DNA of 64,000 nt from Actinomycetota bacterium (GTDB lineage: Bacteria; Actinomycetota; Coriobacteriia; Anaerosomatales; Anaerosomataceae): contig SBEH01000011.1 in the NCBI GenBank assembly GCA_009668945.1, forward strand, positions 1 to 64,000. The letters are read 5' to 3'. Under the pieces are notes generated by a model, which saw nothing but the letters and a program-made list of their open reading frames with translations, was not told where the DNA came from and searched no databases. Shown here piece after piece: positions 1 through 64,000 of the stretch. A program made the position numbers and the translations under genes. Numbering within the stretch: position 1 is the stretch's first letter; every line of letters begins with the position of its first letter.

Positions 1-857
1 GTATCGCGGGGTGGGTGCTCGCCTCACGCCAACCGCTGCTGATCGAGGACCTGTCCGCCCGGACGCCCGCGGCCCGGCGGCACGGAGTCCGATCGGCGGT
101 GTGTGTGCTCATCGCGGATGACGACGGAGTTCTGGGAGTGCTGAACGTGGGTAGCCGTTCGTTCCCTGCGCGGTTCACAGAGTCGCATCTGGCGTCGATC
201 GAGGTCCTGGGAAGACAGACGGCCACGGCGCTTCGCAACGCGCGCGCGGTCGTGACCTCGCGGGAGCTCTACTTCGACACGCTCAAGGCGCTCGCGCTTG
301 CTCTGGAGACGAAGGATCCGTACTCGCGGGGAGGGACCGAGCGGGTGCTCGAGTACGCTGACGCGATCGGGCGGGTCTTCGGCCTGCGAGGCGAGGAGCG
401 CGACGCTCTGAGGATCGCCGCGCTGCTGCATGACATCGGCATGGCCGCTGCGGGCGAAGCGACGGCCACCGTCAGTCGGCCGCTCACGACGGTCGAGCGC
501 GCGCTCCTCAAGATGCATCCTCAGATCGCGGCGGAGATACTCGCCGAGGCACCGGCACTGAAGCACGTAGTGCCGATCGTGTACCACCATCATGAGTGGT
601 ACGACGGTGAAGGGTATCTCAACGGTGTGTCAGGCGAGTCTATCCCTCTAGGCGCACGGATCCTCGCCGTGGCGGATGCGTACGTGGCTATGACGTCGGA
701 CCGGCCCTACCGGTCAGCATACTCGAGCTCCGAGGCGCTCAAGGAACTGACGGACAAAGCAGGAACCCAGTTCGATCCCGCTGTCGTGGATGTCTTGCGT
801 GACATCCTGCAGGGCGGTTCGACCCGGGTTCCGGGGGGAAGCGGCGCAGGCTTCTAG
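1..857 (+). CDS. GAF / HD-GYP domain protein, 5'-truncated by window edge
   Basis: The reading frame is open to the left edge (codon phase begins at base 3), so the gene starts outside the window; the GTG at 15 is internal to a GAF-like stretch. After the GAF remnant comes an HD-GYP domain, known as a c-di-GMP phosphodiesterase fold. Visible motifs are LHDIGM (HD at about 429-434), MHP, HHHEWYDGEGYL and VADAYVAMTSDRPYR. Several family positions look altered: the early RGHSERV box reads RGGTERV, HDxGK reads HDIGM, and GYP reads GYL. Activity may therefore be reduced or lost (inference). The stop codon overlaps the stop of rpmB on the other strand. Confidence 0.85.
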   Translation, partial: IAGWVLASRQPLLIEDLSARTPAARRHGVRSAVCVLIADDDGVLGVLNVGSRSFPARFTESHLASIEVLGRQTATALRNARAVVTSRELYFDTLKALALALETKDPYSRGGTERVLEYADAIGRVFGLRGEERDALRIAALLHDIGMAAAGEATATVSRPLTTVERALLKMHPQIAAEILAEAPALKHVVPIVYHHHEWYDGEGYLNGVSGESIPLGARILAVADAYVAMTSDRPYRSAYSSSEALKELTDKAGTQFDPAVVDVLRDILQGGSTRVPGGSGAGF

Positions 858-7749: not shown

Positions 7750-8285
7750 TGGAGCCCTTCCAGCTGCTCATCGACGTCCGTGAGATCTTCGAAGATCTCG
7801 GGGGCACTGTCGCGCTCGACCTGAGTGTGGAGCTTCCGGACATCATGCTGGGCTCCGAGACGTTCGCCCCCACACGTGATGCCCGCGTTCAGGCGTCGGT
7901 GACCAATACTGGAGCCGGGATCGTCGTATCGGGAACGGTCGACGCCGAGTTCAGGGCGACTTGCGCGCGGTGTCTGCGGGAGTTCCCGCTTCCGATCACA
8001 AGCCTGCTGGAGGCGTTCTACGTAGCCGAAGGTGACGCCGACGAGTTGCCCGAGGAGCAGGAGGTCGGCTTCATCACCGAGGGTTCGGTCGACCTCATGG
8101 AGCAGGTGCTCTCATCGCTTGCCCTGGATCTGCCGTTCGCCCCGTTGCACGCCGAGGACTGTCCCGGCATCTGCCCCACGTGCGGCAAGGACCTCACCGA
8201 GGGTTTCTGCGCGTGTGGGCCCGCAGGTTCGGACTCACCGTTCGCCGGGCTGAAGGGGCTGTTCGAGAATGACGAGGGTGTGTGA
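7749..8285 (+). CDS. DUF177 / YceD family protein
   Basis: A 178-residue DUF177 protein, the family encoded directly before rpmF in many bacteria and implicated in 23S rRNA accumulation or large-subunit assembly. Visible are CARCLREFPLP (CxxC) in the middle and a C-terminal CPGICPTCGKDLTEGFCAC cluster. ATG 7749 forms a TGATG overlap with the previous stop; GTG 7746 directly before it is an alternative. A promoter-like element lies between it and rpmF. Confidence 0.88.
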   Translation: MEPFQLLIDVREIFEDLGGTVALDLSVELPDIMLGSETFAPTRDARVQASVTNTGAGIVVSGTVDAEFRATCARCLREFPLPITSLLEAFYVAEGDADELPEEQEVGFITEGSVDLMEQVLSSLALDLPFAPLHAEDCPGICPTCGKDLTEGFCACGPAGSDSPFAGLKGLFENDEGV

Positions 8286-8302
8286 GCCGACGTCCGGCGG
8301 TC

Positions 8303-8333
8303 TTGCGTCGTGCATTCGGGCGTGTGCTATCAT
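8303..8333 (+). promoter_or_regulatory. Candidate promoter for rpmF
   Basis: TTGCGT (8303-8308) and TATCAT (8328-8333), 19 bases apart, with TGC immediately before the -10 (extended -10 form). It lies in the 135-base gap before rpmF. The spacer is longer than optimal, so confidence rests on the extended -10. Confidence 0.4.
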
Positions 8334-8420
8334 GTCGGCTTGCGCCGGGGGCCCTCGGCCACATGATCACATGCGGTGAAGGCGAAGCCGACGCCGTTCC
8401 GAAGGGAGTACGAGCAAGTC

Positions 8421-8597
8421 ATGGCGGTACCCAAGAGGAAGACCACCCGGGCAGTCAGGGACGCTCGCCGGTCCACACACCGTGTCGAGGCACCCTCGCG
8501 CTCGCTGTGTCCGCAGTGCCACCAGCCGAAACTGCCGCACCGGGTGTGCCCCGAATGCGGGTACTATGACGGCAGGGAAGTCATCGACACCGAGTAG
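8421..8597 (+). CDS. rpmF: 50S ribosomal protein L32
   Basis: A 58-residue protein starting MAVPKRKTTRAVRDARR, the L32 hallmark, with two CxxC pairs (LCPQC and VCPEC) forming the zinc-binding version. The ATG at 8421 is set by this universal N-terminus; the purine-rich GAAGGGAG lies about 12 bases upstream. A perfect GC hairpin follows the stop at once. In many bacteria rpmF is followed by plsX; here two acyl-CoA-type genes intervene. Confidence 0.95.
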   Translation: MAVPKRKTTRAVRDARRSTHRVEAPSRSLCPQCHQPKLPHRVCPECGYYDGREVIDTE

Positions 8598-8601
8598 TGC
8601 C

Positions 8602-8626
8602 AGCGGCGCCGGGATCCGGCGCCGCT
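8602..8626 (+). terminator. GC hairpin after rpmF
   Basis: AGCGGCGCCGG (8602-8612), a 3-base loop and CCGGCGCCGCT (8616-8626) form a perfect 11-bp stem starting 5 bases after the rpmF stop. No U tract follows. It probably ends or attenuates the rpmF transcript and argues against the next gene starting at 8597. Confidence 0.65.
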
Positions 8627-8662
8627 TCTGCTGTCAGGACCGCGGCTACGAGGAGGACGCTG

Positions 8663-10756
8663 TTGCTGGAGGAGTTCTTCGCTCCCCGCAGCATCGCGGT
8701 CGTCGGAGCGTCGCGCGACCCGGAGAAGGTCGGGTACGCCGTCCTCGAGAACCTCATCGGTGGTGGGTTTCCGGGCGCCCTGTATCCGGTCAACCCGAAG
8801 GCGGAGGAGATACTCGGCCGCACATGCTACGCCTCCGTGTCGGAGATTCCCGAGCGCGTGGACCTCGCAGTGGTGGTCGTACCGGCTGCCGCCTGCCGGG
8901 AAGTGATCGAGGAATGCGGGCGTGTCGGAGTGCGTGCGGCCGTCGTGATATCCGCGGGGTTCCGTGAGGCGGGTCCGGCCGGACAGGCGCTCGAACGGGA
9001 GCTCGTTCAGTCGGCGCGCGAGAGCGGCATGCGCATCCTCGGACCGAACTGCCTCGGGCTGATAGCGACTCGAACGAAGGTCAACGCATCGTTCGCTCCG
9101 TTCATGCCGGCGCCGGGCAAGATATCGTTCCTCTCGCAGTCTGGCGCCCTCGGTACCGCCATCCTGGATTGGGCTGCTGACGAAGGCATCGGACTGGGCC
9201 ACTTCGTGAGCCTCGGCAACAAGTCCGACATCACCGAGGTCGACCTGGTAGAGGCGTGGGGACAGGACCCGGAGACGGGTGTCGTCGTCGGGTATCTGGA
9301 GGCGGTCGCGGACGGGCGTTCTTTCGTCCGGGCGGTCGGGTCTTTGGTGCGCAGAGTGCCGTTCATCGCATTGACGGCGGGAAGTTCCGATGCCGGCGCG
9401 CGGGCGGTGTCCTCGCACACGGGCAGTCTCGCTGGCTCTCGTGCGGCGTATGACGCCGCGTTCCGGAAGGCCGGCGTCGTGCGGGCGCACACAGTGGAGG
9501 AGTTGTTCGACCTGGCGGAAGGGTTCGCACGGCAGCCGCTGCCGCGTCGTGGCGGCACGGTGATCGTGACGAACGCCGGCGGGCCGGCGATTCTGGCCAC
9601 CGACGCGTGCGATGAGTACGGCGTGGAGTTGGCGTCGCTTTCTACGGAAACCACGCGTGCGCTGCAGGAGGTGCTTCCGGCGGCAGCCTCGGTCTACAAC
9701 CCGGTGGACATCCTAGGCGATGCACCCGCCGAGCGGTATGCGGAGGCGCTCCGGCTCGTGCTCGCGGATCCCGCTACAGCTTCCGCCATCGTGATCCTCA
9801 CTCCGCAGGCGACGACCGAAGCCGAAGCCGTGGCACGCGCGATTGCGGAGGAGACCGAGCGGTCCGGTGTCACGACCCTCGCGGTGTTCATGGGTGCCGC
9901 CAGTGTGTCGGCGGCCGTGGTGGTGCTCAAGCAGCAAGGCATTCCGGAGTACGCATTCCCCGAGAGGGCCGTGGCGACGCTCTCGGCGATGACGAAGTAC
10001 CGCGACTTCCTGGACCGGCCGATCTCGCCGCCGCCGGAGGTGGCCATCGACCGCGAGGTCGTTCGGGCCGCCATAGACCATGCGCGCCAGGCGCGACGCA
10101 CCTTCATCACCGAGTCCTCCGCGCAGAGGATCGCCGAGGCGTGTGGCATTCCGAGTCCGCGGTCGGGTCTTGCGCGCGACCTCGGCGCCGTGCGAGTCAT
10201 CGCTGCCGAGGTCGGGTACCCGGTCGCGCTGAAGATCGCCAGCCCGGACATCTTGCACAAGTCGGATGTCGGCGGGATCGAGCTCGACCTGCCGGACGCG
10301 GATGCGGCGGAGGCCGCCTACGAGCGCATCATGGGACGAGTCCAGCAGCGGATGCCCGACGCTCGCATCTGGGGCGTGACAGTCCAGCAGCAGCTGCCCC
10401 CGGGACGCGAGGTGATCATCGGTGCGAACCGGGACCCGAACTTCGGGCCGATCGTCATGTTCGGCCTGGGCGGCATCTACGTGGAGATACTCAAGGACGT
10501 CACGTTCCGCTTGTGCCCGGTCACCCTGGTGGAGGCCAGGGAGATGATCAGCGAAATCCGGGCCGCCGGTCTGCTGCGCGGGGCCAGAGGCGCTCCGCCC
10601 GCCGACGTCGAGGCCGTAGCCGATGTGATCTGCCGCGTCTCCGCGCTTGTCTCGGAGTTCGAGGAGATCACCGAGCTTGACATCAATCCGCTAGTCGTCG
10701 GCGACAGGGGCCAGGGCGCCGTAGCGGCGGACGTCCGCATAGGAATCGGAGGCTAA
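8663..10756 (+). CDS. ADP-forming acetyl/acyl-CoA synthetase (fused alpha-beta)
   Basis: A 697-residue protein with the full single-chain layout of ADP-forming acyl-CoA ligases. It has an N-terminal CoA-binding Rossmann domain (IAVVGASRDPEKVGYAVLENL), succinyl-CoA-ligase-like domains with the phospho-His segment SSHTGSLAGS, and a C-terminal ATP-grasp domain (from about FITESSAQRIAEACGIP, with LKIASPDILHKSDVGGI). Known members convert acyl-CoA + ADP + Pi to acid + ATP + CoA, an energy-yielding step in anaerobes. TTG 8663 is chosen because AGGAGG (8651-8656) sits 6 bases before it; GTG 8597 would read through the hairpin. The substrate acid is unknown. Confidence 0.88.
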   Translation: MLEEFFAPRSIAVVGASRDPEKVGYAVLENLIGGGFPGALYPVNPKAEEILGRTCYASVSEIPERVDLAVVVVPAAACREVIEECGRVGVRAAVVISAGFREAGPAGQALERELVQSARESGMRILGPNCLGLIATRTKVNASFAPFMPAPGKISFLSQSGALGTAILDWAADEGIGLGHFVSLGNKSDITEVDLVEAWGQDPETGVVVGYLEAVADGRSFVRAVGSLVRRVPFIALTAGSSDAGARAVSSHTGSLAGSRAAYDAAFRKAGVVRAHTVEELFDLAEGFARQPLPRRGGTVIVTNAGGPAILATDACDEYGVELASLSTETTRALQEVLPAAASVYNPVDILGDAPAERYAEALRLVLADPATASAIVILTPQATTEAEAVARAIAEETERSGVTTLAVFMGAASVSAAVVVLKQQGIPEYAFPERAVATLSAMTKYRDFLDRPISPPPEVAIDREVVRAAIDHARQARRTFITESSAQRIAEACGIPSPRSGLARDLGAVRVIAAEVGYPVALKIASPDILHKSDVGGIELDLPDADAAEAAYERIMGRVQQRMPDARIWGVTVQQQLPPGREVIIGANRDPNFGPIVMFGLGGIYVEILKDVTFRLCPVTLVEAREMISEIRAAGLLRGARGAPPADVEAVADVICRVSALVSEFEEITELDINPLVVGDRGQGAVAADVRIGIGG

Positions 10757-10758
10757 GC

Positions 10759-11826
10759 ATGCGCACGATCCTCGTCACCTCCACGAAGCCCTACACGGGC
10801 AAGAGCGGCATCTGCGTCGCTCTGATCGGGTACCTGGCGTCATCCGGGCTTGATGTGGGGTACTTCAAGCCCTACGGGACGATGCCGACGGTCGACGGCG
10901 GCGTCACGACCGACGAGGACGCCACGTACTTGAACCGGATCCTGGCGCGCCCTTCCGAGCTGGAGGACGTGTGCCCGGTGGTTCGTACACAGTCCTTCAT
11001 CGCGCGCGTACTCTCCGGAGGCGACGCGCCAGGCGTTGCAGAAGTGCGCGCCGCGTTCGACCGATGCTCGCGCGACAGAGACCTCATGGTGGTCGAGGGA
11101 CCCACCGAGCCCGCGCAGGGCGCGTGTGCGGGCCTGACGGCGCCCACGATCGCTGAGATGCTCGACGCGCGAGTGCTGCTCGTGGATCGGCCGCGCGCGA
11201 CCGACCTGCCGGAGGATGCGCTGTGGGTGGCGTCGCAGATGGGCGGGCGTCTTGGCGGGCTGGTGCTCAACGGGGTCGATGAGTCACGAATACAGGTGGT
11301 TCGCGAACAGGTCGTGCCGTATCTGGAGAACCGCGGAGTGCCCGTACTTGGCGTGATCGCACGGGACCCCGCGCTGAGTTCCATCACTGTCGCCGAGATC
11401 GTCGAGACGCTCGGGGGCACCGTGCTGACCGCGCACGACAGGGTCTCGGACGTGGTCGAGACATTCATGGTTGGAGCGATGGGCCAGGAGAAGGCGTTGC
11501 GCTTCTTCCGGCGCAAGGAGAACAAGGCTGTCATCACCGGCGGGGACAGGGCCGACGTGCAGCTGGCGGCGCTCGAGACGAGCACTCGGTGTATCGTGCT
11601 CACAGGTGGCCAACCACCGGGCGCAGCCGTGATGTCGAGGGCCGAGGAGCTCGGAGTGCCGATGGTGCTAGTGGAAACGGACACGCTCACCGCCGTGGAG
11701 CGCATGGATACCCTCTTAGGGCGCGTACACCTTCACGACCCGGTGAAAGCCGCGAGGATGAGAGAGATGTTCGAGCAGGCCGTGGATCTTCGTAGACTCG
11801 ATTCGTCGTTCGGACTGTCGGCGTGA
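10759..11826 (+). CDS. Phosphotransacetylase-N-terminal-like ATPase (BioD-like + DRTGG domain)
   Basis: A 355-residue protein with an N-terminal P-loop of the dethiobiotin-synthetase/CobB type (ILVTSTKPYTGKSGICVAL), the partner segment VVEGPTEP, and a C-terminal DRTGG-like domain (KAVITGGDRADVQLAALE). This is the regulatory N-terminal module of long Pta enzymes, here without the catalytic phosphotransacetylase domain. ATG 10759 follows GGAGG by a few bases and the synthetase stop by 2. Encoded with the acyl-CoA synthetase, it may regulate acetyl-CoA/acetyl-phosphate metabolism; this is inferred from context only. Confidence 0.8.
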   Translation: MRTILVTSTKPYTGKSGICVALIGYLASSGLDVGYFKPYGTMPTVDGGVTTDEDATYLNRILARPSELEDVCPVVRTQSFIARVLSGGDAPGVAEVRAAFDRCSRDRDLMVVEGPTEPAQGACAGLTAPTIAEMLDARVLLVDRPRATDLPEDALWVASQMGGRLGGLVLNGVDESRIQVVREQVVPYLENRGVPVLGVIARDPALSSITVAEIVETLGGTVLTAHDRVSDVVETFMVGAMGQEKALRFFRRKENKAVITGGDRADVQLAALETSTRCIVLTGGQPPGAAVMSRAEELGVPMVLVETDTLTAVERMDTLLGRVHLHDPVKAARMREMFEQAVDLRRLDSSFGLSA

Positions 11827-11846
11827 GAGAGGGCGGGTGGACGGGT

Positions 11847-12887
11847 GTGGATGAGGTCGTCGTCGCGGTCGACGCCATGGGCGGGGACCATGCGCCCGCA
11901 GTCGTCCTTGGAGGCGTTCGTGCGGCATTGGAGTCGGACCGGTCTTTGAGGGTGCTACTCGTCGGACCGGAGGAAGTAGTCGGGTCCTTCGCGCACGACC
12001 GTTGCGAACCGGTCATCGCGGGCGAGGTCATCGGGATGGCCGAGCATCCCGCTCTGGCTGTCAAGACGAAGAAGGACTCCTCCATCGTCGTTGGGTGCCG
12101 ACTGATCAAGGACGGACGGGCCGAAGGGTTCTTCAGTGCGGGAAGCACGGGTGCGTGCATGGCCGCCGCTACTCTCTTCATGGGCAGGATAAGAGGGATC
12201 GGAAGACCGGCTATCGCGGCGGTCATCCCGGCCGCGGAGCGTCTGACCGTCCTGCTGGACGTGGGTGCCAACGCGGACGTGAAGCCCGGGATGCTCGTGC
12301 AGTTCGCGATGATGGGAGCAGCGTACTCACAGGTGGTGTTGGGCGTTGAGTCGCCCTCGATCGGCCTGCTGAACATCGGAACCGAGGACACGAAGGGCTC
12401 GCAGCTCGCGCAGGAGGCGCATGCCATGCTTGCGGCCGGGATGCCGGGCTTCGCCGGGAACGTCGAGGGGAGGGACGTGCCCGCCGGGACGGTCGACGTG
12501 ATCGTCACAGACGGGTTCACCGGGAACGTGACTCTGAAGGCCCTGGAGGGTCTGGCGAAGGTACTCTTCGCCGAGATCAAAGGGGCGCTCAGTCAGAGCC
12601 TGCCGAACCGGCTGGCGGCGTCCGTGGTCGCACCCGCGATCCGGGAGCTCAAGGCCAAGCTGGACCCCGATGCCTACGGCGGGGCTCCGCTGCTTGGAGT
12701 GGACGGGGTGTGCATCATCGGTCACGGTGGGTCCGGCCCGGAGGCTGTCGCCAACGGCATCGCGGTGACCGCGAAGGCGATTCGTGGACGGCTTACCGAG
12801 CGCATCGCCGCGACAGTTGGCGACGTCGCGTCGCCGGGCATCCGGCAGGCTGGGTCATTGCCGCTCGTGCCGAAACGTGTACACTAG
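11847..12887 (+). CDS. plsX: Phosphate acyltransferase PlsX
   Basis: PlsX makes acyl-phosphate from acyl-ACP for phospholipid synthesis. The family start VAVDAMGGDHAP is present, followed by FFSAGSTGACMAAA, LLDVGANADVKP, GLLNIGTEDTKGS and VTDGFTGNVTLKALEG. GTG 11847 gives a family-like N-terminus and is preceded by GGGTGG; GTG 11823, overlapping the previous stop, would add 8 residues and cannot be excluded. PlsX links the FakA/FakB route and the FAS II genes that follow. Confidence 0.92.
   Translation: MDEVVVAVDAMGGDHAPAVVLGGVRAALESDRSLRVLLVGPEEVVGSFAHDRCEPVIAGEVIGMAEHPALAVKTKKDSSIVVGCRLIKDGRAEGFFSAGSTGACMAAATLFMGRIRGIGRPAIAAVIPAAERLTVLLDVGANADVKPGMLVQFAMMGAAYSQVVLGVESPSIGLLNIGTEDTKGSQLAQEAHAMLAAGMPGFAGNVEGRDVPAGTVDVIVTDGFTGNVTLKALEGLAKVLFAEIKGALSQSLPNRLAASVVAPAIRELKAKLDPDAYGGAPLLGVDGVCIIGHGGSGPEAVANGIAVTAKAIRGRLTERIAATVGDVASPGIRQAGSLPLVPKRVH
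12858..12885 (+). promoter_or_regulatory. Candidate promoter for fabH
   Basis: TTGCCG (12858-12863) and TACACT (12880-12885), spacer 16 bases, at the very end of plsX. The 62-base gap before fabH starts just after it and contains a small GCGCT-GAG-AGCGC hairpin. No inverted repeat resembling a known fatty-acid regulator operator was recognised. Confidence 0.4.
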
Positions 12888-12949
12888 CCGGACACTGACG
12901 TGCGTCGGGCGCTGAGAGCGCGGCGCTGACACTAGGGACACATCAGCGC

Positions 12950-13942
12950 ATGCCATACGCCACGATCACGGGAGTCGGCGCCTATCTCCCGAAGCGCGTG
13001 CTCACCAACCGCGACCTCGAAGCGATGGTGGACACCTCCGACGAATGGATCATCACGCGCACGGGGATCCGAGAGCGGCGGATCGTCGACGAAGCGGAGT
13101 CGACATCCACCCTCGGGGCTGCGGCCGCACGTGCTGCACTCAAAGACGCCGGGCTGAAGGCGAAGGACCTCGACCTGCTCGTCGTAGGCACCACGAGCCC
13201 GGACCACATATTCCCCTCAACGGGCGCCCTGATCCAGCGACTCATCGGGGCCCGATGCCCGGCAGTCGACGTCATGGCTGCGTGCACGAGTTTCGTGTAC
13301 GCGCTCCAGCACGCTACGTCAGCGGTAGAGAGCGGACGCGCTTCGCGGGTGCTGGTGGTTGGCGCGGATGCGCTGACAAGGTACGTCGACTTCACCGACC
13401 GCACCACGTGCGTTCTGTTCGGAGACGGCGCGGGAGCAGTAGTGCTCGAAGCGGCCGATGAACCCGGCGTGCTCGGAATCGACCTTGGAACGGACGGCAC
13501 CGGCTCGGACGTCCTGACGATAAAGGCAGGCGGCTCGGCATTCCCTTGCACGGCCGAGCGGCTGGATGGGCGGGAGCAGTATCTCCGCATGTCCGGCAGC
13601 GAAGTATTCAAGTTCGCCGTGCGTGTGATCCCTGAGACCACACTGCGGGCGCTTGCAGCATCGAATCTGAGCATAGATGACGTGGACTGGCTGGTTCCGC
13701 ACCAGGCGAATCAGCGGATTCTGGACACCGTGGAGCAGCGGCTCGGCATCCCGCACAACCGTGTGTTCTCGAATATCGCGAGCGTCGGGAACACGTCGTC
13801 GGCGTCGATACCGCTTGCACTCAACGACCTGTATACTGACGGCCAACTTCACCCCGGTGACATCCTTGTGCTCGTGGGATTCGGAGCCGGGCTGACATGG
13901 GGAGCTGCGATCGTCCGGTGGACGAAGGGGAGCGCCGAATGA
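12950..13942 (+). CDS. fabH: 3-oxoacyl-ACP synthase III
   Basis: A 330-residue KAS III enzyme that starts fatty-acid synthesis by condensing acyl-CoA with malonyl-ACP. The catalytic triad is visible: Cys in VMAACTSFVYAL, His in VPHQANQRI and Asn in ASVGNTSSASIPLAL. The N-terminal ITGVGAYLPKRVLTN and SDEWIITRTGIRERR are typical. It heads the fab cluster and overlaps the next gene (ATGA). Starter-unit choice (acetyl versus branched) cannot be read safely. Confidence 0.95.
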   Translation: MPYATITGVGAYLPKRVLTNRDLEAMVDTSDEWIITRTGIRERRIVDEAESTSTLGAAAARAALKDAGLKAKDLDLLVVGTTSPDHIFPSTGALIQRLIGARCPAVDVMAACTSFVYALQHATSAVESGRASRVLVVGADALTRYVDFTDRTTCVLFGDGAGAVVLEAADEPGVLGIDLGTDGTGSDVLTIKAGGSAFPCTAERLDGREQYLRMSGSEVFKFAVRVIPETTLRALAASNLSIDDVDWLVPHQANQRILDTVEQRLGIPHNRVFSNIASVGNTSSASIPLALNDLYTDGQLHPGDILVLVGFGAGLTWGAAIVRWTKGSAE

Positions 13943-60177: not shown

Positions 60178-61395
60178 GTGACCGAGCGTCCCGTCATCGT
60201 CATGAAGTTCGGCGGCACGTCGGTCGCCACGCCAGAAGGGCGCTGCGCGATCGCCAGCCGCGTGACCGAGGCCCTCGAGCTCGGCAAGGCTCCAGTGGTC
60301 GTGGTTTCGGCGATGGGCCGCAAGGGCGCGCCGTACGCCACCGACACGCTGCTCGGACTCGTTGCCGACCTTCCCGCCGACGCGCGCGAGCGCGACCTGC
60401 TCGCCTCCAGCGGCGAGGTGATCTCCGCCGTGGTCGTGGCGCACGAACTCCGCGCTGCTGGCATAGACGCCTGCGCAATGACCGGCGCCGAAGCCGGCAT
60501 CGGCACCGATGGTGCGCACGAAGACGCGTCTGTGACCGACATCTACCCAGCATCGCTTCTGGATGCGATCGCCGCCGGCCAGGTGCCGGTCGTGGCGGGC
60601 TTCCAGGGTGTGGCGCCTGACGGGAGCATCACGACCCTCGGTCGCGGCGGAAGCGACACCACCGCCTGCGCTCTGGGTGTAGCGCTCGAGGCTGAGGCCG
60701 TGGAGATCTACACCGACGTGGACGGCGTGATGACCGCAGACCCGCGCACATGCGACGGCGCGGCCGTGCTCGACGTGATAGGCGCCGACGAGCTCTTCCA
60801 GATGGCCGCACACGGCTCGCGTGTGGTACACACGCCGGCAGCCGAACTTGCGCTGGCGAGCGGGCTTGCGGTGCGTGTGCGCAACACGTACACCGACCAT
60901 CCCGGCACCACGGTGGCCGACATCGCATCGTACCGTCCGGCGAGCGTGGCGACCGCTGTGTCGCACGCCACCGGCATCGCACGCGTGCGCGTGACGCTTC
61001 CCGCCGAGGAGGGGAGTGTCGACCACATGGCCGCACAGGCTCGCGTGTACCGGGCGATGGCCGACGCCGGCGTCTCGCTCGACATGTTCACGCCGGCGGG
61101 CGAGTCGCTGCTGTTCACGGTACCCGAGAGCGCCGTAGCCGAGGCGCGTCGGGTGCTCGACGGTCTCGGCCTTGACGCCGAGGCCCGCGAGAATCTGGCG
61201 AAGGTCACACTCGTGGGAGCGGGGATGCACGGGGTTCCCGGCGTTGTGGCTCGCATTGCCGAGGCGCTCGACGAGGCCGGCGTCCGTGTGTTGCAGACAG
61301 CCGACAGCCACACGACGATCTCGGTGCTTGTCCCCGCCGAGGATGCCGACCGCGCGGTAGGGGCACTACATGAGGGTTTCGGGCTCGGGGGGTAG
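60178..61395 (+). CDS. lysC: Aspartate kinase
   Basis: A 405-residue aspartokinase: VMKFGGTSVATPEG (kinase motif), ASSGEVISA, LGRGGSDTTACALGVAL and EIYTDVDGVMTADPR, then two ACT domains (from about residue 262; second with LVGAGMHGVPGVVARI) that bind the allosteric amino acid. GTG 60178 lies 4 bases after dapB. It is the last chromosomal core gene before the cassette array; its end is complete and of normal length, so the array did not truncate it. Confidence 0.95.
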   Translation: MTERPVIVMKFGGTSVATPEGRCAIASRVTEALELGKAPVVVVSAMGRKGAPYATDTLLGLVADLPADARERDLLASSGEVISAVVVAHELRAAGIDACAMTGAEAGIGTDGAHEDASVTDIYPASLLDAIAAGQVPVVAGFQGVAPDGSITTLGRGGSDTTACALGVALEAEAVEIYTDVDGVMTADPRTCDGAAVLDVIGADELFQMAAHGSRVVHTPAAELALASGLAVRVRNTYTDHPGTTVADIASYRPASVATAVSHATGIARVRVTLPAEEGSVDHMAAQARVYRAMADAGVSLDMFTPAGESLLFTVPESAVAEARRVLDGLGLDAEARENLAKVTLVGAGMHGVPGVVARIAEALDEAGVRVLQTADSHTTISVLVPAEDADRAVGALHEGFGLGG

Positions 61396-61529
61396 GGCCG
61401 CGGGTTCACTTCCGACTTATGCAGACTGCGCATGTCCGAGTGATATGCTCGAATGCAGGAACCTGCGCCGGGCGTATCCGGAACGCGAATACGTTCGTGT
61501 ACGGGGGATTGCGGTCTGGATACTAGGTG
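61396..61529 (+). other. Boundary segment between lysC and cassette array, possible attI
   Basis: These 134 bases end in the simple core GTTAGGC (61529-61535), where the first cassette begins after the G. No R'' box or pairing left arm precedes it, so it is not an attC; this is the position an attI site would occupy. No integrase gene and no clear gene fit here. Weak promoter-like words (for example TACTAG at 61521-61526) could serve the first cassette but are not convincing. Confidence 0.4.
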
Positions 61530-61575
61530 TTAGGCCCAGCGAAAGTGGGGCACCCCTGGTGGAGGTCGATGCAGC

Positions 61576-61800
61576 ATGAAGCAGTTCACCGCCACGTATA
61601 CCTCGAAGGACGCCGTCTCTCTGCACTGCCGCGGCTGCTCTGACGTGGTCGCGGAGGCGTCCGCGGGCAAGACGACTCAAGACTTCGACGCCGTCGACTA
61701 CAACGATGCAGTTGAAAGGCTCGTGGCGATGGGGTTTCCGGAGGAGCATGTCCGGATCTTCTTCTGCGTTGAGCATGCGCCAGACGCGCCGGATGCGTAG
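61576..61800 (+). CDS. Cassette 1 protein, unrecognised, 74 residues
   Basis: ATG 61576 follows GGAGG (61561-61565) by 10 bases and the frame ends just before attC1, the classic single-gene cassette layout. The protein is small and acidic, with a CRGC motif at about residues 18-21 (SLHCRGCSDVV) and a lone Cys near the end (RIFFCVEHAP). DAVERLVAMGFPEEHVR suggests a helical segment. I do not recognise a family. It is the first cassette, so would be the best expressed if an external promoter reads into the array. Confidence 0.75.
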   Translation: MKQFTATYTSKDAVSLHCRGCSDVVAEASAGKTTQDFDAVDYNDAVERLVAMGFPEEHVRIFFCVEHAPDAPDA

Positions 61801-61810
61801 GCGGTCGCGG

Positions 61811-61896
61811 GCCTAACAAGGGCATCGAGCAGAACGCCAGAAGGTAGACTGACCTGAGAGCGTGAGTGCGTCTGCTCATGCCCAAAGACGTTAGCG
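61811..61896 (+). other. attC: attC site 1
   Basis: R'' GCCTAAC (61811-61817) and R' GTTAGCG (61890-61896). L'' GGGCATCGAGCAGA pairs with TCTGCTCATGCCC near 61870-61883, leaving one extra C in L'' (an unpaired G on the bottom strand), the mark that orients recombination. R'' matches the 5' end of cassette 1, whereas R' TTAGCG belongs to cassette 2. Confidence 0.88.
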
Positions 61897-62317
61897 CGAT
61901 ACCGCGACACCTTCGGTGATGAGGTTTCCGCACGTCTCCCTCGGCTCGAATCCTTCGGCCTACCCGGCACGCGGTCGGACCTGAACGCGGCACCCCGGCA
62001 GGGAAAGCGCGCACGTTCGAGTCATCGCCCTAATCCCGTCGGCTGCGGCGCGCTGACCCTGGCAACCTGATCGGCCTCTTGCTCCCTGCGCGCCTGACCC
62101 GCAGGCATGGAAACGAAGGTGCTGGTCTTCGGTGCGCGCAGATTGTCGTCGAGAGTGTGTAGCCGGAGTCACCTTCGGGTCCGTCTTGCCGCACCCGCTT
62201 CCGTGACCACCTCGCCTGATGATCGTGAACTACTGCGCTAACAAGCGCATCCACACCGACGCGCCCGGCCGCTCGGTTATGCTGTAAGCGAGTGGCGCGC
62301 GGGTGATGCGCAACACG
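61891..62317 (+). mobile_element. Cassette 2, 427 bp, no convincing gene
   Basis: This cassette has the same length as cassettes 3 and 4 and is clearly related to them by point changes without net length change. The + strand shows only a 21-codon frame (61919-61984) without a proper ribosome-binding site. The minus strand has a 74-codon frame (62030-62254, GTG start inside its own attC, no ribosome-binding site), about 54 of 74 residues identical to the copy in cassettes 3/4. It may be non-coding, or carry an antisense gene or RNA. Confidence 0.8.
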
Positions 62318-62323
62318 TTAGCG
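62236..62323 (+). other. attC: attC site 2
   Basis: R'' CGCTAAC (62236-62242), R' GTTAGCG (62317-62323). L'' GCGCATCCAC pairs with GTGATGCGC, again with one extra C in L''. The central region contains GCGCCCGGCCGCTCGG and CTGTAAGCGAGTGGCGCGC, giving additional pairing in the terminal structure. Confidence 0.88.
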
Positions 62324-62744
62324 TGAATCCCGGGAGTCGGTGGAGATGAGGTTTCCGCGCGTCCTCCTCGGCTCGAATCCTTCGGCCTACCCGGCACGCG
62401 GTCGGACCTGAACGCTGCGCCCTGGCATTCAAAGCGCGCACGTTCGAGTCATCGCCCTATTCCCGTCGGCCGCGGCGCGCTTGCCATCGCCACCTGATCG
62501 GCCACTCGCTCCCTGCGCGCCTGACCCGCAGGCATGGAAACGAAGGTTCGCCTCTGTGGTGCGCGCAGAGTGTCGTCGAGAGTGTGTAGCCGGAGTCGCC
62601 TTCGGGTTCGTCTTGCTGCATGCGCTTACGTGACCACCTCGCCTGGGACTCGTGGCTCATCACGCTAACAAGCGCATCCACACCGACGCGCCCGGCCGCT
62701 CGGTTATGCTGTAAGCGAGTGGCGCGCGGGTGATGCGCAACACG
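62318..62744 (+). mobile_element. Cassette 3, 427 bp, no convincing gene
   Basis: Starts TTAGCGTGA, matching the reverse complement of its R'' flank CACGCTAAC over 9 bases. It contains a 21-codon + strand frame (62346-62411) and a 74-codon minus-strand frame (62457-62681, GTG start inside the attC). Neither has a good ribosome-binding site. It appears identical to cassette 4 apart from a few bases in the attC end. Confidence 0.8.
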
Positions 62745-62750
62745 TTAGCG
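62663..62750 (+). other. attC: attC site 3
   Basis: R'' CGCTAAC (62663-62669), R' GTTAGCG (62744-62750), with the same arms, extra C in L'' and central region as attC2; the two sites appear identical between their R boxes. Confidence 0.88.
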
Positions 62751-63171
62751 TGAATCCCGGGAGTCGGTGGAGATGAGGTTTCCGCGCGTCCTCCTCGGCT
62801 CGAATCCTTCGGCCTACCCGGCACGCGGTCGGACCTGAACGCTGCGCCCTGGCATTCAAAGCGCGCACGTTCGAGTCATCGCCCTATTCCCGTCGGCCGC
62901 GGCGCGCTTGCCATCGCCACCTGATCGGCCACTCGCTCCCTGCGCGCCTGACCCGCAGGCATGGAAACGAAGGTTCGCCTCTGTGGTGCGCGCAGAGTGT
63001 CGTCGAGAGTGTGTAGCCGGAGTCGCCTTCGGGTTCGTCTTGCTGCATGCGCTTACGTGACCACCTCGCCTGGGACTCGTGGCTCATCACGCTAACAAGC
63101 GCATCCACACCGACGCGCCCGGCCGCTCGGTTATGCTGTAAGCGAGCGGCGCGCGGGTGATGCGCCAGACG
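62745..63171 (+). mobile_element. Cassette 4, 427 bp, near-duplicate of cassette 3
   Basis: Repeats cassette 3 including the small + frame (62773-62838) and the minus-strand frame (62884-63108, same 74-residue translation). Differences are confined to the last part of the attC (a T to C change at 63157-region and changes just before R'). The near identity indicates a recent duplication. Confidence 0.8.
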
Positions 63172-63177
63172 TTAGGC
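63090..63177 (+). other. attC: attC site 4
   Basis: R'' CGCTAAC (63090-63096), R' GTTAGGC (63171-63177). Arms as in attC2/3 but with about three substitutions in the right half (GCGCCAGAC in place of GCGCAACAC). R' changes to TTAGGC because it belongs to cassette 5. Confidence 0.88.
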
Positions 63178-63195
63178 CCACGATTTGAGGTCGGG

Positions 63196-63903
63196 TTGAG
63201 GCGAGAGTTCAGAGGTGCAACCTGCGCATACTGCGGCGAGCGCACCTGCACCACTGACGATCATGTCTTCGCGCGAGGCTTCTTCTTGGAGGAGCATCGT
63301 GTGAATCTGCCCAAGGTGCCGGCATGCGATGAATGCAACGGCCGGAAGTCACACCTCGAGCACTACGCGACGACCATTCTCCCTTTCGGCGGACGTCACG
63401 CCGCTGCAATCGACAACCTGCGCACTCTGGTGCCGCCGCGTCTAGAGAAGAACGCCAGACTTCATCGGGATATCGTCGCGAACATGAGGCGTGCATGGGC
63501 CCAGCACGGCTCGTTCGTTCTGCCCACGGCCAGCGTGCCAGTTGACGGTGAGCGAATTCACGAGCTCTTTCGTTTCGTGGGCCGTGGGCTGGTTTCGTAC
63601 GAGTTCGGCGTGACTCTGAAGCCCTCGGATCTAGTCGAGGTGACCACACTGACTGCGCAAGGGATGGAGCTGTTCGAGACCCAGTTCTTCGGTCCGCACG
63701 TTAGCAGCGTCCGTCATGTGGATCTCGGCGCCGGAACCGTTGTGTACGAGGGGCTGCAGGCTCAGGACATGCCTGAGGCGACCGTATGGAGAATCCAGAT
63801 GTACGGGGGCATGTGGATGCTTTCTGATTCGACCCCTCCGGAAGCGAACGGATCGCTGCTTGGAATCATGACGGGTCCTGAGGGGATGGATGGCGGGGCC
63901 TAA
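63196..63903 (+). CDS. Cassette 5 HNH-like endonuclease-fold protein
   Basis: A 235-residue protein whose N-terminal 55 residues hold an HNH-type pattern: Cys10/Cys13 (CAYCGE), Asp22-His23 (DDHVFARGFF), Cys44/Cys47 followed by Asn48 (VPACDECNGRKS) and Glu55. TTG 63196 is chosen because GAGG lies 5 bases upstream and it is inside the cassette; GTG 63157 would start in the preceding attC. The last 170 residues are unrecognised. The TAA stop (63901-63903) lies inside the attC5 R'' box. HNH proteins occur as solitary nucleases and in defence systems; no partner is encoded here. Confidence 0.8.
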   Translation: MRREFRGATCAYCGERTCTTDDHVFARGFFLEEHRVNLPKVPACDECNGRKSHLEHYATTILPFGGRHAAAIDNLRTLVPPRLEKNARLHRDIVANMRRAWAQHGSFVLPTASVPVDGERIHELFRFVGRGLVSYEFGVTLKPSDLVEVTTLTAQGMELFETQFFGPHVSSVRHVDLGAGTVVYEGLQAQDMPEATVWRIQMYGGMWMLSDSTPPEANGSLLGIMTGPEGMDGGA

Positions 63904-63984
63904 CAAGTGCTTCCAGCTGGCGCGGCAGGCGCTATCGTGTGATGCAGACGCTTCGGCGCGCAGCTGAAGCACCGGACGTTAGGC
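63898..63984 (+). other. attC: attC site 5
   Basis: R'' GCCTAAC (63898-63904), R' GTTAGGC (63978-63984). L'' TGCTTCCAGCTG pairs with CAGCTGAAGCA near 63961-63971, with one extra C in L''. Its arms differ from attC1 and from attC2-4, so at least three attC types are present. After R' the sixth cassette begins and runs off the window. Confidence 0.88.
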
Positions 63985-64000
63985 GTGGAATCGCTGGGGG

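What the first reader, a model, noticed from the sequence alone, without database searches (positions are those of the whole stretch)
61529..64000. Integron cassette array in a core-chromosome actinobacterial-like context, no integrase in view
Five attC sites with canonical R''/R' boxes and pairing L arms delimit cassettes of 361, 427, 427, 427 and 807 bases directly after lysC. Integrons are best known from Proteobacteria and a few other phyla and are rarely reported from Actinobacteria-like genomes, if the host placement is right. The absence of an integrase on the attI side is unusual; it may be lost, lie beyond the right edge, or act from elsewhere in the genome.
Basis: partly seen in the sequence, partly recalled or inferred. 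Interest (0 to 1): 0.92.

Follow-up and report, generated by a model that had tools for sequence, protein, structure and literature searches.

The report
Integron array with distant integrase
In this uncultured actinobacterium a row of mobile gene cassettes sits between two lysine-synthesis genes behind its own docking site, while the enzyme that should insert the cassettes is encoded elsewhere in the genome beside a second, nearly identical docking site; related bacteria repeat this one-enzyme, several-docks layout.

Summary
A covariance model built only from other genomes finds exactly the five attC sites in the 64-kb window (E 6e-17 to 3e-13) and nothing else. All seven cassettes readable on the contig have a 5' heptamer complementary to their own R'' box. 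The site at 61529 is an attI, not an attC. An intact IntI lies on another contig (C21), followed by an attI whose 25-bp core matches the window's at 24 of 25 positions. The host is class Coriobacteriia (Actinomycetota). Integrons are routine in its order (46 of 69 genomes) but rare in the phylum (16 of 396).

The missing integrase is not an edge effect: three relatives carry lysC-attI-array-dapA closed inside contigs of 261 to 400 kb with no intI, and two of them have intI elsewhere. Attachment-site searches found 24 attI-headed arrays without a neighbouring intI in 16 genomes of the order.

Best reading: one integrase serves several attI-headed arrays in trans. The anatomy is shown; the in-trans action is inferred. 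This is a new variant of a known kind. The main rival is relic arrays whose own integrases were lost.

The parts
60178..61395 (+). lysC (aspartate kinase), left chromosomal border of the array; dapA is the right border, on contig C7
   Evidence: dapA on C7 after an array tail, Pfam DHDPS E 2.9e-86
61416..61429 (+). upstream repeat element of attI (CTTATGCAGACTGC), about 20 nt after the lysC stop
   Evidence: same element at the same place downstream of intI and of lysC in relatives
61509..61533 (+). attI simple site TTGCGGTCTGGATACTAGGTGTTAG, crossover at the G of GTT (61529)
   Evidence: 24 of 25 identical to the site 117 bp after intI on C21; best hit in the array contig of a sequence model that left out this genome, 11.7 bits, E 0.024 in 59 kb
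61529..61889 (+). cassette 1, 361 bp; ORF 61576-61800 (74 aa, weak UBA/TS-N match)
61811..61896 (+). attC 1
61890..62316 (+). cassette 2, 427 bp, apparently ORF-less
62236..62323 (+). attC 2
62317..62743 (+). cassette 3, 427 bp, paralogue of cassette 2 (372 of 427 identical)
62663..62750 (+). attC 3
62744..63170 (+). cassette 4, 427 bp, 424 of 427 identical to cassette 3
63090..63177 (+). attC 4
63171..63977 (+). cassette 5, 807 bp; ORF ending at 63903 with two CxxC pairs (HNH-like by eye, no Pfam match)
63898..63984 (+). attC 5
63978..64000 (+). start of cassette 6 (ion-channel ORF), which continues to C24:64909; a seventh cassette follows

Best explanation
The feature is an integrase-less integron cassette array headed by its own attI, inserted between lysC and dapA. 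The genome's only integron integrase is encoded on another contig (C21). It reads toward a second attI that heads another array, the 'inverted' layout also known from Treponema. The proposed mechanism is that IntI, made from the C21 locus, recombines circular cassettes (folded bottom-strand attC) into either attI, so one integrase feeds several chromosomal arrays in trans. Shown: attC anatomy, the attI pair, an intact IntI, the borders, and recurrence in relatives. Inferred: that IntI uses the lysC attI, and that this site arose by copying of an attI.
For: An independent attC model hits exactly the five sites. Cassette ends match their own R'' in 7 of 7. IntI scores 471.7 bits against TIGR02249 with a cut-off of 265 and aligns with 31 relatives, catalytic residues and IntI-specific region conserved. 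Exactly two copies of the attI core within 3 mismatches exist in the genome, one after intI and one after lysC. Both loci carry the upstream repeat plus the simple site at similar spacing. lysC-attI-array-dapA is closed on 371-, 261- and 400-kb contigs in G001, G002 and G005 with no trace of intI, while G002 and G005 have intI elsewhere. The sequence model R2, trained on intI-adjacent attIs of other genomes, finds sites away from intI; 16 of about 19 testable ones are followed within 3 kb by a same-strand attC, where I estimate about 2% by chance. A second attI subtype heads seven further such arrays, each with an exact R'' complement. The cassettes after lysC in this genome have no counterpart in the lysC arrays of the three relatives although the site is conserved.
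Against: No recombination was measured. In G002 and G005 the lysC attI belongs to a subtype unlike the attI beside their intI, and in G002 the attC spacer differs by locus (lysC array CCCG, intI array AAG), which could point to a different or former integrase. G001 has 38 attC matches but no intI was found. No cassette was found shared between two closed arrays of one genome. The spacer between the two attI elements shows no significant homology between C21 and C24 (228 of 1000 shuffles as good). The own genome is a draft, and its array contigs are not joined.
Confidence: 0.68

Rival explanations
1. Relic: the lysC array was once a complete integron with its own intI, later deleted; it is a degraded CALIN and is no longer fed.
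For: [quoted passage not shown] G016 keeps only a 41-aa intI remnant with a stop. G045 has three truncated intI 3' ends, each followed by an attI. The lysC attI subtype of G001, G002 and G005 was not seen beside any intI read here.
Against: No intI trace at E 0.01 in any lysC interval or satellite locus, apart from one marginal recombinase-like hit at a site without attCs, while truncated copies in G045 are easily found. The upstream repeat starts about 20 nt after the lysC stop, leaving no room for an intI remnant. The own lysC attI core matches the resident intI's attI (24 of 25). The cassettes of this genome's lysC array are not found in the other lysC arrays.
Confidence: 0.2
2. Assembly break: intI or a further attI module lies in the unassembled part between C24 and C7, so the array is an ordinary integron whose integrase sits mid-array.
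For: The own genome is a draft of 32 contigs; C24, C9, C2, C4, C7, C20 and C21 break inside arrays.
Against: The one intI found is a complete gene with its own attI and a chromosomal left flank on C21. Three relatives have the interval closed without intI. The genome is 99% complete with a single IntI.
Confidence: 0.07
3. Off-target insertion: cassettes entered a chance genomic site (attG) after lysC and not a dedicated attI.
For: Cassette insertion at attG or secondary sites by a distant IntI is a known route (PMC8618304, PMC12901181, PMC12444791).
Against: The head carries a 25-bp core 24 of 25 identical to the intI-adjacent attI plus the upstream repeat at the usual spacing; the position is conserved in four genomes of two genera.
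Confidence: 0.05

Closest known systems
CALIN (cluster of attC sites lacking an integron integrase), for example Xanthomonas CALINs away from ilvD
   Same: At least two attCs without an adjacent intI, at conserved chromosomal positions in genomes that may keep intI elsewhere (PMC12444791).
   Different: Here the array is headed by a recognisable attI of the resident type; the passages I read on CALINs describe none.
Treponema-type inverted chromosomal integron
   Same: The integrase of this genome is transcribed toward attI, in the direction of the cassettes (PMC3607928). The order's IntIs fall in a supported group with Spirochaetes, Chlorobi, Planctomycetes and Neomarinimicrobiota.
   Different: Treponema is described with one attI per integron; here further attI-headed arrays lie away from intI.
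Delta-attI-type cassettes of class 1 and 2 integrons
   Same: More than one attI-derived site served by one integrase (PMC12901181).
   Different: Those are attI-derived sites standing in for attC inside one mobile array; here whole sites head separate chromosomal arrays.
attG insertion sites
   Same: Cassettes placed away from the integron by IntI acting in trans.
   Different: attG sites diverge strongly from att sites; this one is a conserved attI.

Membership tests
Integron gene-cassette array | Several attC sites with R''/R' and L''/L' pairing, same orientation | tested here: met
   Independent model R3, five of five; bottom-strand folds
Integron gene-cassette array | Cassette 5' heptamer complementary to its own R'' box | tested here: met
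   7 of 7 cassettes
Complete integron | intI adjacent to attI | tested here: not met
   No intI in the window or in the closed lysC-dapA intervals of three relatives; met at C21 instead
Complete integron | attI at the head of the array | tested here: met
   61416-61533
Complete integron | Cassette promoter Pc | tested here: inconclusive
   No sigma-70-like match; a TATGCT hexamer at 61444-61449 recurs in related sites, by eye only
CALIN | At least two attCs without an integrase nearby | tested here: met
   Seven attCs on C24, intI on C21
CALIN | Degraded remnant of an integron (proposed origin) | tested here: inconclusive
   No remnant of intI, but activity could not be tested
Inverted (Treponema-type) integron | intI transcribed toward attI | tested here: met
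   For the C21 locus and relatives
In-trans satellite array | Resident IntI recombines cassettes at this attI | not testable with these tools
   Needs a recombination assay or a strain series

The most novel reading that the evidence does not exclude
attI itself behaves as a spreading unit in this order of Coriobacteriia: short attI modules are copied to new intergenic sites and found several cassette arrays per chromosome, all fed by one integrase (a distributed integron). One attI subtype (CGCAGWCTGC..GGGTTA) was found only at such satellite arrays.
Probability: 0.4. Interest if true: 0.8.

Novelty: new variant of a known kind. Interest (0 to 1): 0.62.

Why it matters
Integrons are described as one integrase with one attI and one array, and arrays without an integrase are usually taken as relics or off-target insertions. 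Here many integrase-less arrays carry their own attI, so they may be live. That would change how CALINs are read. It would also show that attI, which current finders do not search outside class 1 integrons (PMC9024848), is worth searching genome-wide. Complete integrons, which that 2022 survey reported as lacking in Actinobacteria, are routine in one order of Coriobacteriia. Whether one integrase can run several arrays becomes directly testable.

Tried and rejected
Rfam gathering search: no hit in the window. The strict attI pattern missed most relatives; a profile was needed. Homology of the own genome's two attI regions beyond the two elements was tested and not supported. Cassettes shared between closed arrays of one genome were sought and not found. 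Coding of the 427-bp cassettes was tested: differences fall evenly on the three codon positions of the only ORF (11, 11, 11), so the ORF is not credible. The 427-bp cassette has no match in the other 69 genomes searched. A sigma-70 promoter was sought before cassette 1 and not found. Literature searches for 'multiple attI', 'second attI', 'two attI' and 'integron' with 'OPB41' gave no description of this layout; the library holds open-licence papers only. Model R1 contains the window's own attCs, so R3 was built without them. The careful IntI tree did not finish, so only the quick tree is used.

Full report
WHAT IS THERE. The window is C24:1-64000 of a 1.92-Mb draft genome (99% complete, 32 contigs). 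After lysC (60178-61395) the sequence holds an attI and five cassettes, and the contig continues to 65829 with two more attCs. Cassette lengths 361, 427, 427, 427 and 807 are exact. A covariance model of attC built only from other genomes (R3) finds the five sites at E 6e-17 to 3e-13 and nothing else in 64 kb up to E = 5. Bottom strands fold into attC hairpins with an unpaired spacer and extrahelical bases. Each of seven cassettes starts with a heptamer that is the exact complement of its own R'' box, as expected of units that have been circles.

THE HEAD IS AN attI. The core at 61529 has no attC partner upstream. Its left side, TTGCGGTCTGGATACTAGGTGTTAG, recurs once in the genome within three mismatches: 117 bp after the stop of an intact integron integrase on contig C21. 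The two 25-mers differ at one base and the flanks are not similar. At both places a second element, CTTAYRCAGACTGC, stands about 20 nt after the stop of the preceding gene and about 80 nt before the simple site. The same two-element structure follows intI in many relatives. A sequence model trained on attIs of other genomes gives the window site 11.7 bits, the best hit in the array contig.

THE INTEGRASE. IntI on C21 scores 471.7 bits (cut-off 265), has an unbroken frame, and aligns with 31 integrases of the order with the catalytic residues and the IntI-specific region conserved. It reads toward its attI, in the cassette direction, the inverted layout known from Treponema (PMC3607928). In a quick tree the order's integrases fall in a supported group with those of Spirochaetes, Chlorobi, Planctomycetes, Omnitrophota and Neomarinimicrobiota; that group holds nine of ten loci scored as inverted and none of those scored as classical. 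The careful tree did not finish.

THE HOST. Contig lengths tie two family members to public records, a Coriobacteriia bacterium (JAUSBY010000008.1) and Actinobacteria bacterium UBA2184 (DCVQ01000001.1). IntI is above cut-off in 46 of 69 genomes of the order (own genome included) and in none of 30 genomes of the class outside the order. Across the phylum it is in 16 of 396 genomes. IntegronFinder 2.0 reported no complete integron in Actinobacteria (PMC9024848), while a 2021 review lists Actinobacteriota among phyla with integrons (PMC8618304).

THE BORDERS. On contig C7 an array tail is followed by dapA. In most of the family dapA follows lysC directly. In G001, G002 and G005 the same interval is opened by 13.4, 12.1 and 3.1 kb, closed on contigs of 371, 261 and 400 kb, with attI after lysC, attCs, and no trace of intI. 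G002 and G005 have intI on other contigs; G001 has none that could be found. Thus the absence of intI beside the array is not due to the window edge.

HOW GENERAL. R2, trained on intI-adjacent attIs without the own genome, was run over 70 genomes. Setting aside sites beside intI and sites at contig ends, 16 of about 19 sites are followed within 3 kb by a same-strand attC; from about 15 attCs per strand in 2 Mb I expect about 2%. A second subtype, CGCAGWCYGC..AATT..GGGTTA, seen at the three relatives' lysC sites, turned up at five more places, four of them followed by attCs whose R'' is the exact complement of the core. Together with the window this makes 24 attI-headed arrays without a neighbouring intI in 16 genomes; 11 of these genomes have intI elsewhere (one with an in-frame stop). 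G017 has one intI and at least five such arrays. A few of these sites have about 1 kb or less upstream (G026 C201, G032 C19, G062 C89), so a hidden intI cannot be excluded there. In G045 three tandem attIs follow truncated intI 3' ends, which shows one way a free attI can arise.

HOW IT WORKS, MOST LIKELY. Shown: cassettes, attI pair, integrase, borders, recurrence. Inferred: IntI from C21 inserts circular cassettes at the lysC attI in trans. Supporting but indirect: the core at lysC matches the resident integrase's attI; this genome's lysC cassettes are absent from the relatives' lysC arrays while the site persists; and the first cassette after the lysC attI in G002 and G005 resembles the first cassette after the intI attI in G015 (about 71% identity). 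Against: in G002 the lysC and intI arrays have different attC spacers, and in G002 and G005 the lysC attI subtype differs from the intI-adjacent one.

COMPARISON. By the usual definition the array is a CALIN. Xanthomonas has CALINs at fixed places apart from intI, and such arrays can be mobilised in trans (PMC12444791). The proposed origins of CALINs are off-target insertion, loss of intI and rearrangement (PMC8618304). What differs is a recognisable attI at the head, repeated across an order. I found no description of this in the held papers, which are open-licence only.

VERDICT. A real integron array, ordinary in its cassettes, in a lineage where integrons are routine, but with a layout (one integrase, several attI-headed arrays) that I did not find described. 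New variant of a known kind; the in-trans mechanism is likely, not proven.

Noticed in passing
window 61890-63170: Three tandem 427-bp cassettes without a credible ORF (cassettes 3 and 4 identical but for 3 bases, cassette 2 is 87% identical); part of a fourth copy starts contig C2; no match in the other 69 genomes searched.
   Followed up: partly
L100 (G045 C32) 8144-13200, minus strand: Three tandem truncated intI 3' ends with broken frames, each followed by an attI, on the contig that also holds the full intI: a possible duplication route for attI.
   Followed up: partly
L206 (G000 C8) 51-76, minus strand: A third attI-like site in the own genome (ACCCAGACTGTACAATCCTT|GTTAG), running off the contig end.
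   Followed up: partly
L094 and L096 (G002): attC sites read near the head of the lysC array carry CTAACCCG after R'', those of the intI array CTAACAAG (one CTAACAGG): spacer type goes with the locus.
   Followed up: no
window 61444-61449: TATGCT hexamer between the two attI elements; similar ATATGC or TATGCT strings stand before several satellite attIs, a possible cassette promoter.
   Followed up: no
window 61576-61800: Cassette 1 ORF of 74 aa matches Pfam UBA/TS-N at E 3e-5, odd for a bacterial cassette.
   Followed up: no
L093, L196, L198 (G001): 38 attC matches in several arrays but no integron integrase found in a 98% complete genome.
   Followed up: partly
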